DNA of 64,000 bases from Mycobacterium sp. BK086 (GTDB lineage: Bacteria; Actinomycetota; Actinomycetes; Mycobacteriales; Mycobacteriaceae). Positions 763 to 38,814 of this stretch are shown here, piece by piece (the first letter of the stretch is position 1; every line of letters begins with the position of its first letter). The DNA lies in contig SNWL01000003.1 in NCBI GenBank assembly GCA_004362315.1, forward strand, positions 1,550,001 through 1,614,000. The letters run 5' to 3'. The notes beneath the pieces were generated by a model that worked only from the letters and a program-made list of their open reading frames with translations, searched no databases and was not told the origin of the DNA. Position numbers and translations under genes: made by a program.

Positions 763-2088
763 GTGGCAGACATCAAGCGCGGCCGTGCGGCCCGCAACGT
801 CAAGCTGGCGACCATCCCGGTCGGTTTCGCCGGCCGGGCGGCGCTGGGCTTCGGCAAACGGCTGACCGGCAAGTCGAAAGACGAGGTCCAGGCCGAGCTG
901 TTGGAGAAGGCCGCCAACCAGTTGTTCACCGTGCTCGGCGAGCTCAAGGGCGGCGCCATGAAGGTGGGCCAGGCGCTGTCGGTGATGGAAGCCGCGATCC
1001 CCGCGGAGTTCGGCGAGCCGTACCGCGAGGCCCTGACCAAACTGCAGAAGGACGCCCCGCCGCTGCCCGCGGCCAAGGTGCACCGAGTGCTCGACGGCCA
1101 GCTCGGCACCAAGTGGCGTGAGCGCTTCACCTCATTCGACGACACCCCGGTGGCCTCGGCCAGCATCGGCCAGGTGCACAAGGGTGTGTGGTCGGACGGC
1201 CGCGAGGTCGCGGTCAAGATCCAGTACCCCGGCGCCGACGAAGCCTTGCGCGCCGACCTGAAGACCATGCAGCGCTTGGTCAGTGTGTTCAAACAGCTGG
1301 CCCCCGGCGCCGACGTGCAGGGTGTCGTCGACGAGCTCATCGAACGCACCGAGATGGAGCTGGACTACCGGCTGGAGGCCGACAACCAGCGCGCGTTCGC
1401 CAAGGCCTACGAGGGACATCCGCATTTCGTCGTGCCGCACGTGGTGGCCAGCGCCCCGAAGGTGATGATCACCGAGTGGATCGACGGCGTGCCGATGGCG
1501 CAGATCATCCGCGAGGGCACGCCCGACGAGCGAGACCTTTGCGGCACAAGGCTTATCGAGCTGACCTTCGATGCGCCGTCGCGGCTCGGCATGATGCACG
1601 GCGACGCACATCCGGGGAATTTCATGATGCTGCCCGACGGCCGGATGGGTGTCATCGACTTCGGCGCGGTCGGCCCGCTGCCCGACGGCTTGCCCATCGA
1701 GATCGGCCAGATCATCTGTCTGGCCCGTGACAAGAACTACGACGAATTGCTGCCCACCATGGAGCGGGTCGGCTTCATCCAAAAGGGTGAGCAGGTGTCG
1801 GCGAATGAAATCGACGACATGCTGCGTCAGTACGTGGAGCCGATCGAGGTCGAGGTGTTCCACTACACCCGCCGGTGGCTGCAGAAGATGGCCGCGGCGA
1901 ACATGAATGTCTCGGCGGCACAGATCAAGACGGCCCGGTCGATGGATCTGCCGGCCAAGCTGGCGATTCCGCTGCGGGTGATCGCATCGACGGTGGCGAT
2001 CTCGTGTCAGCTCGACGCCCACGTGCCGACGCGGGAGCTGGCGGCCAAGCTGGTTCCCGGCTTCGTCGAACCCGAACCGGCGCACTGA
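763..2088 (+). CDS. ABC1/UbiB-family atypical kinase (Rv3197-like)
   Basis: The protein has 441 residues with a GTG start at 763, which gives the MADIKRGRAARN N-terminus typical of mycobacterial orthologues. The ABC1 (ADCK/UbiB) hallmarks are all present: KxGQ at 67-70, a VASASIGQVH loop near 130-139 in place of the normal P-loop, the ATP lysine in VAVKIQ (K152), HGDAHPGNF at 279-287 and the metal-binding DFG at 299-301. Family members are ATPases or atypical kinases tied to lipid or quinone metabolism. M. tuberculosis databases call it an ABC transporter ATP-binding protein, which the motifs do not support. It is convergent with whiB7, 19 nt away. Confidence 0.9.
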   Translation: MADIKRGRAARNVKLATIPVGFAGRAALGFGKRLTGKSKDEVQAELLEKAANQLFTVLGELKGGAMKVGQALSVMEAAIPAEFGEPYREALTKLQKDAPPLPAAKVHRVLDGQLGTKWRERFTSFDDTPVASASIGQVHKGVWSDGREVAVKIQYPGADEALRADLKTMQRLVSVFKQLAPGADVQGVVDELIERTEMELDYRLEADNQRAFAKAYEGHPHFVVPHVVASAPKVMITEWIDGVPMAQIIREGTPDERDLCGTRLIELTFDAPSRLGMMHGDAHPGNFMMLPDGRMGVIDFGAVGPLPDGLPIEIGQIICLARDKNYDELLPTMERVGFIQKGEQVSANEIDDMLRQYVEPIEVEVFHYTRRWLQKMAAANMNVSAAQIKTARSMDLPAKLAIPLRVIASTVAISCQLDAHVPTRELAAKLVPGFVEPEPAH

Positions 2089-2098
2089 CCGGTTCGGG
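2071..2098. terminator. Hairpin spanning the stop codon of the ABC1 kinase
   Basis: CCCGAACCGG at 2071-2080 and CCGGTTCGGG at 2089-2098 form a perfect 10-bp stem. The 8-nt loop contains the kinase stop codon. It lies between two convergent genes and could stop transcription from both sides. There is no U-tract, so it is either a mycobacterial 'I-shaped' terminator or only an RNA-stability element. Confidence 0.5.
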
Positions 2099-2107
2099 CC
2101 CGACGAC

Positions 2108-2377
2108 TCAAGCCGCGATCACGTCCTTACGGGGACGCCCACGCGGGCGCTTGCGCTCGACGATGCTGCCGCGCTCGATGATCTCGCCGCCCCAAACACC
2201 CCAGGGCTCACCGCGGTCCAGCGCGGCGGCCAGGCACTGACGCCTGATCGGGCATTCCGCGCAGAGCACCTTGGCGCGCTCCAGGTCGATCGGACTCTCG
2301 GCGAACCACAGGTCGGGATTCCCGACATGGCACGGCAACACCGGCAGCTTCTCCTGGCGGACTGTCGATGCCGACAT
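2108..2377 (-). CDS. whiB7: WhiB7, Fe-S transcriptional regulator of intrinsic antibiotic resistance
   Basis: This 89-residue protein carries the four WhiB cysteines that hold a [4Fe-4S] cluster (C16, C39, C42, C48), the EPWGVWGGE turn (57-65) and a C-terminal AT-hook RPRGRPRK (77-84). The AT-hook is what distinguishes WhiB7 from other WhiB proteins. WhiB7 binds region 4 of the housekeeping sigma factor, and its hook contacts an AT-rich element just upstream of the -35. It induces its own gene and resistance genes when translation is blocked. An AGGTGAG Shine-Dalgarno lies 7 nt before the ATG at 2377. The gene has a 5' leader of about 380 nt with an upstream ORF and an attenuator, annotated separately. 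Confidence 0.96.
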   Translation of the reverse strand: MSASTVRQEKLPVLPCHVGNPDLWFAESPIDLERAKVLCAECPIRRQCLAAALDRGEPWGVWGGEIIERGSIVERKRPRGRPRKDVIAA

Positions 2378-2457
2378 GTCTCGCTCACCTGCTTCCTGGT
2401 CGAATGGCTATCTCGTTTGAGAGGGATCCGGGACCAGGTTTCTGGTGGAAACACAGA

Positions 2458-2491
2458 GGCCACGGATCCTTTTGACTTCGGGTCCGTGGCC
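2458..2491 (-). terminator. whiB7 leader attenuator hairpin
   Basis: On the minus strand GGCCACGGA (2491-2483) pairs with TCCGTGGCC (2466-2458), nine perfect base pairs, followed by TCTGTGTTT. It lies 24 nt after the upstream ORF's stop and 80 nt before whiB7. The 5' arm can pair instead with GTCCGTGG (2539-2532) inside the end of the upstream ORF, an 8-bp antiterminator. A separate hairpin, GGAGCTT/AAGCTCC (about 2528-2506), covers the ORF's stop codon. This is the layout expected of ribosome-mediated attenuation, which is known for whiB7 leaders. The specific pairings here are my reading. Confidence 0.75.
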
Positions 2492-2514
2492 AGTGGCTGT
2501 GTCTGGGAGCTTTC

Positions 2515-2700
2515 CTAGATGAAGCTCCTGTCCACGGACGCGATCGTCGGGGCGGCGTTGGCGCGACGCTTGGGCTGAGCCGAAATAGCGGCTGCGCCAG
2601 CGGCATGGGCTGCATGCGACGGGGTCGCGACGACACCGAGGTAGGACCATCCGCGCCGCGCCATGCCAGCTACGCCAAATTTGGCTGTGGTGCTGCTCAT
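2515..2700 (-). CDS. Upstream ORF in the whiB7 leader (61 codons)
   Basis: The ATG at 2700 follows a strong GAGGAGGGA Shine-Dalgarno. The peptide begins MSSTTAKFGVAGMARRGW and ends SVDRSFI, with a TAG stop at 2515. It is alanine-rich and matches no domain. It lies wholly within the whiB7 leader, downstream of the whiB7 promoter. Its last codons contain one arm of the proposed antiterminator. Its role is probably as a translated sensor: slow or stalled ribosomes at its end would prevent the attenuator from forming. Whether the peptide itself has a function is unknown. Confidence 0.75.
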   Translation of the reverse strand: MSSTTAKFGVAGMARRGWSYLGVVATPSHAAHAAGAAAISAQPKRRANAAPTIASVDRSFI

Positions 2701-2764
2701 CGTCAGATCCCTCCTCTCGTCACGCCGCCCTGTAGCCATCGATCGGCACAGGATTGATGAATCG

Positions 2765-2802
2765 AGGCTAAACCCTAACACGATTTCAGCACAAGCGATT
2801 TT
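2765..2802 (-). promoter_or_regulatory. WhiB7-dependent whiB7 promoter
   Basis: On the minus strand the AT-rich box AAAATCG (2802-2796) sits immediately upstream of a -35 TTGTGC (2794-2789). After an 18-nt spacer comes a -10 TAGCCT (2770-2765). WhiB7-activated promoters are known to carry an A/T-rich block directly upstream of the -35 that the AT-hook contacts. Transcription would start near 2758, giving a leader of about 380 nt. Confidence 0.75.
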
Positions 2803-2899
2803 CTGACCTGCGCTTTTGCGGTTTGAGGCGTGCGGGAACTTCGTCTGCCGGGCCGACCCGGGCAGCGAGCTTGAAGGCGGTCCTGACAAACTGATTCCC

Positions 2900-3394
2900 A
2901 TGGCACAGATAACCCTGCGTGGAAACCCGATCAACACCGTTGGAGACCTGCCCGCCGTCGGCGCCCAGGCCCCCGCTTTCGACCTGACCGGCACCGACCT
3001 CGGCTCCGTGGACAGCGGCCAGTTCGGCGGAAAAGCCGTGGTGCTCAACATCTTCCCGTCGGTCGACACCCCCGTGTGCGCCACCAGCGTGCGGACGTTC
3101 AACGAGCGCGCCGCAGCCACCGGCGCGCCGGTGGTGAATGTGTCGAAGGATCTGCCGTTCGCCCAGAAGCGATTCTGCGGCGCAGAGGGCATCGAGAACG
3201 TCGTGACGGCGTCGGCCTTCCGCAGCAGCTTCGGTGAGGACTACGGCATCACGATCACCGACGGACCGATGGCGGGCCTGCTCGGCCGGGCCGTCGTCGT
3301 CGTGGGTGCTGACGGCAAAGTCGCCTACACCGAGCTCGTTCCCGAGATCGGCCAAGAGCCCGACTACGACGCAGCGCTCGCCGCACTGGGCTGA
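2900..3394 (+). CDS. tpx: Thiol peroxidase Tpx (atypical 2-Cys peroxiredoxin)
   Basis: At 164 residues it is the normal Tpx length, starting MAQITLRGNPINTVGDLP. The peroxidatic cysteine C60 sits in DTPVC and the resolving cysteine is C93 in KRFCG, as in Tpx enzymes that reduce alkyl and hydrogen peroxides with thioredoxin. A longer frame from 2816 would overlap the whiB7 promoter and adds nothing Tpx-like, so the ATG at 2900 is preferred. No clear Shine-Dalgarno is visible. It is divergent from whiB7 and 2 nt upstream of a DUF1254 gene, probably one operon. In M. tuberculosis tpx is elsewhere (Rv1932), so the location here differs. Confidence 0.95.
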   Translation: MAQITLRGNPINTVGDLPAVGAQAPAFDLTGTDLGSVDSGQFGGKAVVLNIFPSVDTPVCATSVRTFNERAAATGAPVVNVSKDLPFAQKRFCGAEGIENVVTASAFRSSFGEDYGITITDGPMAGLLGRAVVVVGADGKVAYTELVPEIGQEPDYDAALAALG

Positions 3395-38542: not shown

Positions 38543-38797
38543 ATGGATTGGCGCCACACAGCGGTCTGTCGCGACGAGGATCCGGAACTGTTCTTCCCGG
38601 TCGGGAACAGCGGACCGGCGCTCGCCCAGATCGCTGACGCAAAGCTGGTCTGCAACCGGTGCCCGGTAACCACCGAGTGCCTGACCTGGGCTTTGGACTC
38701 CGGCCAGGATGCCGGCGTCTGGGGCGGCATGAGCGAGGACGAGCGTCGCGCGCTCAAGCGTCGCAATGCCCGCACCCGCGCGCGCAGCAGCGTCTAA
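38543..38797 (+). CDS. whiB1: WhiB1, NO-sensitive Fe-S regulator
   Basis: This 84-residue protein has the WhiB cluster cysteines C9, C37, C40 and C46, the GVWGGMSEDERR turn and a basic C-terminus KRRNARTRARSS. A strong AAGGAG precedes the ATG. WhiB1 binds region 4 of SigA through its [4Fe-4S] cluster. Loss of the cluster by nitric oxide converts it into a DNA-binding repressor. It is essential in M. tuberculosis. The upstream CRP-like site points to cAMP control. A strong terminator follows. Confidence 0.96.
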   Translation: MDWRHTAVCRDEDPELFFPVGNSGPALAQIADAKLVCNRCPVTTECLTWALDSGQDAGVWGGMSEDERRALKRRNARTRARSSV

Positions 38798-38814
38798 GCC
38801 GCTTTCAGACTTCA

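What the first reader, a model, noticed from the sequence alone, without database searches (positions are those of the whole stretch)
2458..2700. Readable whiB7 attenuation circuit: uORF, stop-codon hairpin, terminator and alternative antiterminator
The 61-codon uORF has a strong Shine-Dalgarno. Its final codons contain GTCCGTGG (2539-2532), which pairs perfectly with CCACGGAC (2489-2482), the 5' arm of the 9-bp attenuator (2491-2458). A further 7-bp hairpin covers the uORF stop. The two main structures exclude each other, so ribosome position on the uORF could decide whether whiB7 is made. Attenuation of whiB7 by a uORF is known in mycobacteria; the exact pairings in this strain are my reading.
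Basis: partly seen in the sequence, partly recalled or inferred. Interest (0 to 1): 0.75.

Follow-up and report, generated by a model that had tools for sequence, protein, structure and literature searches.

The report
whiB7 leader switch with ribosome-site lock
This is the RNA leader that keeps a mycobacterial antibiotic-response gene off until ribosomes stall; that switch is already known, but the comparison suggests the same RNA may also hide and release the gene's own ribosome-binding site.

Summary
The terminator stem covaries across related actinobacteria (double changes at 4 of 9 pairs; 101 leaders). The uORF arm looks selected as RNA: its serine codon is TCC in 64 of 64 cases against 14 of 207 serine codons in whiB7, and 7 of 103 uORFs keep the same bases in another reading frame. 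whiB7/wblC attenuation, with an antiterminator overlapping uORF and terminator, is already in print.

In the 103 mycobacterial leaders aligned here, the terminator's 3' arm can also pair with a downstream block (arm 4, 2438-2424), which can instead pair with GACCAGG (arm 5, 2401-2395) beside the whiB7 Shine-Dalgarno. The window's two best folds tested are terminator plus 4:5 (OFF, -75.2) and antiterminator plus 3:4 (ON, -70.6). Arms 4 and 5 change jointly in a few lineages; 3:4 shows conservation only. I propose that one ribosome stall releases both transcription and translation. That second layer is inferred. Nearest precedents: B. subtilis vmlR and tlrB.

The parts
2108..2377 (-). whiB7 coding sequence (89 aa, WhiB domain, RGRPRK AT-hook-like tail)
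   Evidence: Pfam Whib 3e-15; one strong hit in its own genome, E 2.4e-58, next listed 1.8e-9; AT-hook label recalled
2709..2718 (-). Shine-Dalgarno of the uORF (GAGAGGAGGG)
   Evidence: sequence read directly; G-rich sites before many relatives' uORFs, by eye
2515..2700 (-). uORF, 61 codons, 16 Ala
   Evidence: a uORF was assigned in 103 of 103 mycobacterial leaders that carry the terminator motif
2532..2539 (-). arm 1, GTCCGTGG, uORF codons for A-S-V-D
   Evidence: exact complement of arm 2; TCC 64 of 64; kept in another frame in 7 of 103; exact 8-mer in 49 of 103
2506..2528 (-). hairpin over the uORF stop codon (7 bp)
   Evidence: predicted in the window; a hairpin pairing or enclosing part of the stop was counted in 70 of the 70 leaders folded (3 of 73 without the TCCGT anchor were left out), mean z -1.39, 19 of 70 at p<0.05 (the listing flags L109 as not enclosing it)
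2458..2491 (-). intrinsic terminator: arm 2 (2491-2483) and arm 3 (2466-2458)
   Evidence: motif in 103 of 110 loci; covariation across related actinobacteria
2449..2456 (-). U-tract CTGTGTTT; it can pair with AGACACAG (2504-2497)
   Evidence: constrained fold of the window
2424..2438 (-). arm 4, CCTGGTCCCGGATCC: pairs with arm 3 (GGATCCG 2469-2463, GGCC 2461-2458) or with arm 5
   Evidence: 95.4% of cells paired with arm 3 in 73 leaders, slid controls 6-48%, no double change
2395..2401 (-). arm 5, GACCAGG, directly upstream of the whiB7 Shine-Dalgarno
   Evidence: 95.9% of cells paired with arm 4 in 73 leaders, slid controls 6-44%; joint changes in a few lineages
2385..2394 (-). whiB7 Shine-Dalgarno, AAGCAGGTGA
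   Evidence: sequence and spacing to ATG 2377
2765..2803 (-). likely promoter: AT-rich GAAAATCGC, TTGTGC (2794-2789), 18 nt, TAGCCT (2770-2765)
   Evidence: read directly; the resemblance to WhiB7-activated promoters is recalled; the consensus scan found none; a crude motif matched 23 of 73 leaders

Best explanation
It is the whiB7 attenuator of a mycobacterium, and it probably works as a five-arm relay. When the uORF is translated to its stop, the ribosome covers part of arm 1 and melts the stop hairpin. Arms 2 and 3 then form the terminator. In transcripts that leak through, arm 4 pairs with arm 5, which lies against the whiB7 Shine-Dalgarno, so they are poorly translated. When a ribosome stalls earlier in the Ala-rich uORF (drug or amino-acid shortage), arm 1 pairs with arm 2. 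Arm 3 is freed, transcription continues, arm 3 takes up arm 4, and arm 5 with the Shine-Dalgarno stays open. The terminator and antiterminator layer is known biology, with comparative support here. The ribosome positions are inferred. The ribosome-site lock is inferred from conservation, joint change and predicted folds.
For: Terminator covariation. RNA-level constraint on arm 1. In the window the free minimum is terminator + arm 4:5 (-75.2 kcal/mol); antiterminator + arm 3:4 is -70.6, and the mixed state antiterminator + arm 4:5 is worse at -67.8. Anchors for arms 4 and 5, searched with permissive patterns written after seeing the leaders, were found in 103 of 103 leaders with the terminator motif. 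Arm 3:4 is paired in 95.4% of cells and arm 4:5 in 95.9%. With arm 4 held fixed in the swap test, the native arm 5 is best for UGGUUCC/GGAACC and CUGAUC/GAUCAG, narrowly best for UCUGGUC/GACCAGA, and best for the canonical class apart from classes with the same arm 5. The segment enclosed by arm 3:4 has variable sequence but is stable (mean z -1.50 in 96 leaders, 33 at p<0.05). With arm 3 present, predicted openness of arm 5 + Shine-Dalgarno rises from 0.31 to 0.45 (up in 76 of 96 leaders; 0.31 with arm 3 shuffled). Ten mycobacterial leaders taken as lacking the two arms have longer U-runs (mean 5.8 against 3.8).
Against: No expression, probing or termination data for this RNA. Arm 3 hardly varies, so arm 3:4 shows no covariation. 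On the 73-row alignment arm 4:5 has only two cells changed on both sides; 15-22 of 500 shuffles reach the counts of double changes and pair types, 3-5 of 500 the covariation score and percentage paired. The swap test is weaker the other way: with arm 5 held fixed, canonical arm 4 pairs with GAUCAG about as well as the native arm 4 does (-11.2 to -11.8 against -11.6), and for the CCGG, CUCGG, CCCGGUC and lostG rows the native arm 5 was not best. The UGGUUCC class is 7 loci with only 3 distinct arm pairs, the CCGG class 8 loci with 7, so few independent events. The window's relatives with CCUGGCC and GACCAGG, and the CCCGGUC class, lose one arm 4:5 pair. Native arm 5 beat its shuffles in 73 of 117 leaders. 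The arm 4:5 helix ends just before the Shine-Dalgarno core. In 20 of 96 leaders openness did not rise. The enclosed hairpin is weak in the window's own clade. The U-run comparison is not corrected for relatedness.
Confidence: 0.57

Rival explanations
1. Transcription attenuation alone: uORF, terminator and antiterminator act as published, and arms 4 and 5 are merely an ordinary 5' UTR with a conserved extended ribosome-binding site.
For: The published mechanism needs only arms 1-3 (passages in PMC10727445 and PMC9618640). Leaders outside the genus (by eye) and some mycobacteria show no such arms. Arm 3:4 has no covariation.
Against: GACCAGG lies upstream of the Shine-Dalgarno and is largely kept while the spacing to the start codon varies. 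Arms 4 and 5 change together in a few lineages. The two best folds tested for the window pair terminator with 4:5 and antiterminator with 3:4.
Confidence: 0.27
2. Arms 4 and 5 form a DNA operator or a protein- or RNase-binding hairpin that affects mRNA stability or binding of a regulator, unrelated to the attenuator.
For: A 7-bp inverted repeat (CCTGGTC/GACCAGG or variants) was found in the 103 mycobacterial leaders aligned.
Against: The spacing between the repeats varies from 18 to 56 nt, unlike a dimer operator. Arm 4 also keeps complementarity to terminator arm 3, which this view does not explain.
Confidence: 0.05
3. Arm 3:4 mainly stabilises the antiterminated state by holding arm 3 away from arm 2; the Shine-Dalgarno effect is incidental.
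For: Arm 3:4 can form only after the polymerase has passed the U-tract (inference from order), and arm 4 is kept where arm 5 is weak (L176, L179; read by eye).
Against: It does not explain why arm 5 is conserved and changes jointly with arm 4.
Confidence: 0.11

Closest known systems
whiB7/wblC uORF-mediated transcription attenuation (Lee et al. 2022; Burian and Thompson 2018; neither read, known through citing papers)
   Same: uORF, Rho-independent terminator, and an antiterminator using sequences of both (passages in PMC10727445, PMC9618640, PMC11550727)
   Different: The passages of ten papers seen here mention no ribosome-site lock for whiB7. The exact base pairs given here are for this genome and its relatives.
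Bacillus subtilis vmlR leader (PMC9226507, passages)
   Same: uORF stall, antiterminator, terminator, and a hairpin partly sequestering the Shine-Dalgarno; pairing in readthrough RNA is proposed to open that hairpin
   Different: Different gene (ABCF ATPase), phylum and sequence; it has an anti-antiterminator and NusG pausing, which were not tested here
Bacillus subtilis tlrB (yxjB) leader (PMC6851288, passages)
   Same: Transcription and translation attenuation together control an antibiotic-response gene through a stalled leader ribosome
   Different: No overlapping antiterminator was identified there; the stalled ribosome itself blocks the terminator and the Shine-Dalgarno hairpin
Amino-acid attenuators of the trp/ilv type, such as the M. 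tuberculosis ilvB1 leader (PMC13236596, passages)
   Same: Mutually exclusive terminator and antiterminator chosen by ribosome position on a leader ORF
   Different: Output here is a stress regulator; there is an additional predicted pairing at the gene's ribosome site

Membership tests
whiB7/wblC uORF attenuator | uORF with Shine-Dalgarno upstream of whiB7 | tested here: met
   translation itself not shown
whiB7/wblC uORF attenuator | Rho-independent terminator between uORF and whiB7 | tested here: met
   stem and covariation met; U-tract poor and the simple scan found none; termination not shown
whiB7/wblC uORF attenuator | Antiterminator that uses the uORF end and the terminator's 5' arm | tested here: met
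   8-bp pairing, codon bias and frame-independent conservation; function not shown
whiB7/wblC uORF attenuator | Downstream gene is a WhiB7 protein | tested here: met
   Pfam Whib 3e-15; no NCBIfam match; AT-hook read by eye
whiB7/wblC uORF attenuator | Induction by ribosome inhibitors or amino-acid shortage | not testable with these tools
   no expression data
whiB7/wblC uORF attenuator | WhiB7-activated promoter upstream | tested here: inconclusive
   motif read in the window; crude pattern in 23 of 73 leaders
Dual transcription/translation attenuators (vmlR, tlrB) | Hairpin that sequesters the gene's Shine-Dalgarno in the off state | tested here: inconclusive
   arm 4:5 predicted and conserved but it ends just before the Shine-Dalgarno core; not shown by experiment
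Dual transcription/translation attenuators (vmlR, tlrB) | Stall of the leader ribosome relieves both layers | not testable with these tools
   needs reporters or in vitro assays
Curated Rfam family | Match to a known RNA family | tested here: not met
   0 matches in the window at gathering thresholds

The most novel reading that the evidence does not exclude
The whiB7 leader of many mycobacteria is a five-arm relay in which one ribosome stall unlocks transcription (1:2 instead of 2:3) and then translation (3:4 instead of 4:5). The translational lock arose within mycobacteria and makes up for a weak U-tract, since leaders without it have longer U-runs.
Probability: 0.43. Interest if true: 0.65.

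Novelty: new variant of a known kind. Interest (0 to 1): 0.5.

Why it matters
WhiB7 controls intrinsic resistance to ribosome-targeting drugs in mycobacteria, and the papers seen here explain its low basal level by termination. A second lock on the ribosome-binding site would explain how weak terminators still give little WhiB7. Reporters on the terminator alone would then underestimate control, and sequence differences beyond the terminator would need to be read as regulatory. It would also be a parallel to the dual attenuators of Bacillus resistance genes in an unrelated phylum.

Tried and rejected
Rfam scan of the window: no family. Promoter and terminator consensus scan of 2000-3000: nothing. 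A combined arm 4/arm 5 pattern as a genome-wide marker (169 of 248 genomes) was dropped because many listed matches do not look like whiB7 leaders. The pattern arm 2-arm 3-first half of arm 4 was used instead (172 of 248 genomes, no match of the reversed control in any row); it does not cover arm 5. RNAalifold on gapped MAFFT alignments gave weak consensus folds, I think because the enclosed loops do not align. Synonymous recoding as a test of arm 1 pairing was only modest (17 of 73 at p<0.05); the codon and frame evidence is stronger. In one search the automatic start choice gave over-long uORFs for some leaders (for example L001, L036), so uORF length figures, also those, are not used. In one search the arm 5 pattern for L142, L144 and L157 appears to have hit the wrong place, so that class is not interpreted. 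The automatic classes (58 of 60 loci; 2 without a located gene) were re-read by eye.

Full report
The sequence. On the minus strand the window holds whiB7 (2377-2108; Pfam Whib, 3e-15). It is preceded by a 61-codon uORF (2700-2515) with a strong Shine-Dalgarno, a 7-bp hairpin around the uORF stop, and a 9-bp hairpin at 2491-2458. The uORF's GTCCGTGG (2539-2532) is the exact complement of CCACGGAC (2489-2482). The folded 3' leader is more stable than shuffles (z -4.89). Rfam has no matching family at its thresholds.

Comparative set. 110 loci came (30; 80, the best hits to this WhiB7, so biased towards its relatives). The terminator motif was found in 103 of 110; the seven without it were L028, L085, L087, L097, L099, L108 and L110. 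Of the 103, 96 are distinct in the 3' leader and 73 remain after removing near-duplicates. A strict pattern of arm 2, arm 3 and the first half of arm 4 matched 172 of 248 genomes drawn from the genus, its reversed control none. Of the 76 negatives I searched 74 for whiB7 (the other two leaders were already in hand); 65 had one at E 1e-20. I read 60 of those 65; of the other five, three were already in hand and two were partial or at a contig end. 25 more leaders, 22 from other genera of the order and three mycobacterial, came and the first five.

Known layer. Within the genus the terminator core is almost invariant. Across 101 leaders with 24 distinct stems (73 mycobacterial plus 28 others; three further loci without a located gene were left out), pairs 1, 5, 6 and 8 change on both sides and stay paired, pair 1 in one stem only. 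Arm 1 lies in coding sequence, yet its serine codon is TCC in 64 of 64 uORFs that have the SV motif (of 73), against 14 of 207 serine codons in the whiB7 genes. In 7 of 103 leaders the same bases are read in another frame, as RPW or SPW. So the bases rather than the peptide appear to be conserved. These counts are not corrected for relatedness. The exact GTCCGTGG is in 49 of 103, a TCCGT core in 95 of 103. Seventeen of 73 leaders beat synonymous recoding at p<0.05, which is weaker support. Outside the genus many antiterminator candidates use a different block (CCTCGAGG types) with compensatory forms, while a few leaders gave only weak candidates. The stop hairpin was counted as pairing or enclosing part of the stop in 70 of 70 leaders folded, mean z -1.39, 19 at p<0.05, although its listing flags L109 as not enclosing it. 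Passages of PMC10727445, PMC9618640, PMC11550727, PMC4128351 and PMC13236596 describe this circuit, or parts of it, for whiB7/wblC. Whether drugs stall ribosomes inside the whiB7 uORF was still called untested in a 2025 paper (passage of PMC12121999).

Second layer. Downstream of the terminator the leaders carry a block CCTGGTC...GGATC (arm 4) and, 18-56 nt later, GACCAGG (arm 5) just before the whiB7 Shine-Dalgarno; with permissive patterns, written after seeing the leaders, both were found in 103 of 103. Arm 4 can pair with terminator arm 3 (95.4% of cells in 73 leaders; slid controls 6-48%; no double changes because arm 3 hardly varies) or with arm 5 (95.9%; slid controls 6-44%; two double-changed cells; 3-22 of 500 shuffles reach the several measures). 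Among leaders missed by the strict pattern, some lineages have other complementary arms: UGGUUCC with GGAACC (7 loci, 3 distinct arm pairs) and CCGG with CCGG (8 loci, 7 distinct). CUGAUC with GAUCAG (L058, L163) and UCUGGUC with GACCAGA (L060) also occur. In the swap matrix with arm 4 fixed, the native arm 5 is best for UGGUUCC and CUGAUC, narrowly for UCUGGUC, and for the canonical class apart from classes sharing its arm 5; it is not best for the CCGG, CUCGG, CCCGGUC and lostG rows. With arm 5 fixed, canonical arm 4 serves GAUCAG about as well as the native one. Native arm 5 beat its shuffles in 73 of 117. The segment enclosed by arm 3:4 varies in sequence and length (10-44 nt) but folds better than shuffles (mean z -1.50, 33 of 96 at p<0.05); it is weak in the window's own clade.

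Energetics. For the window the free minimum is terminator + 4:5 (-75.2 kcal/mol); antiterminator + 3:4 is -70.6 and antiterminator + 4:5 is -67.8. Over 96 leaders, adding arm 3 raises the mean openness of arm 5 and the Shine-Dalgarno from 0.31 to 0.45, and a shuffled arm 3 leaves it at 0.31; the rise is seen in 76 of 96. These are equilibrium predictions without polymerase or ribosome.

Distribution. Ten mycobacterial leaders taken as lacking both arms (eight clear by eye, L162 and L190 less so) have longer U-runs (mean 5.8, against 3.8 in 73 with arms; Mann-Whitney p 0.0002, not corrected for relatedness). The leaders outside the genus show no such block by eye and many have long U-runs. This suggests, without proving it, that the ribosome-site lock appeared in mycobacteria and goes with weak terminators.

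Mechanism and standing. Shown by sequence: the elements, their complementarity, their conservation, and covariation of the terminator. Supported: RNA-level selection on arm 1, and joint change of arms 4 and 5 in a few lineages. Inferred: ribosome position as the switch (published for the family) and the translational lock (new here as far as I could see). The closest precedents for a combined lock are vmlR and tlrB of B. subtilis (passages of PMC9226507 and PMC6851288). Searches for whiB7 with uORF/attenuation/terminator, antiterminator, wblC, Shine-Dalgarno with secondary structure, and leader with ribosome binding site and hairpin gave listings, and the passages I opened from them show no report of it; not every listed paper was opened. 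Lee 2022 and Poulton 2024 are not held, and Burian and Thompson 2018 was not looked up, so prior description there cannot be excluded.

Noticed in passing
window 763-2088 (+): The gene converging on whiB7 matches NCBIfam macrolide-binding ATPase MABP-1 (886 bits, cut-off 800), an ABC1-type atypical kinase (Pfam).
   Followed up: partly
window 2816-3394 (+): Thiol peroxidase (NCBIfam PRK00522, 2.8e-68) lies divergently upstream of the uORF.
   Followed up: partly
window 38576-38803 (+): A further WhiB-like stretch with one in-frame TAA inside the matched region (G000:C1:1588576-1588803).
   Followed up: no
G255:C2:313672-313741 and 315715-315784: Two copies of the attenuator motif about 2 kb apart in one mycobacterial genome, which may mean a tandem whiB7 duplication.
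   Followed up: no
G099, G107, G151: Three mycobacterial genomes at least 97% complete with no whiB7-like match at E 1e-20, so whiB7 may be absent or diverged there.
   Followed up: no
L025, L026, L057, L058, L080, L081, L094: uORFs whose C-terminal frame differs while the antiterminator bases stay the same, a natural frame-shift control.
   Followed up: yes
L117, L118, L122, L125-L128, L130, L132 (other genera of the order): Antiterminator candidates built on a CCTCGAGG-type block beside the terminator stem, a different register from the mycobacterial one.
   Followed up: partly
window 2504-2497 with 2456-2449: In the window the U-tract can extend the terminator stem by 8 bp, leaving hardly any free U-run.
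   Followed up: partly
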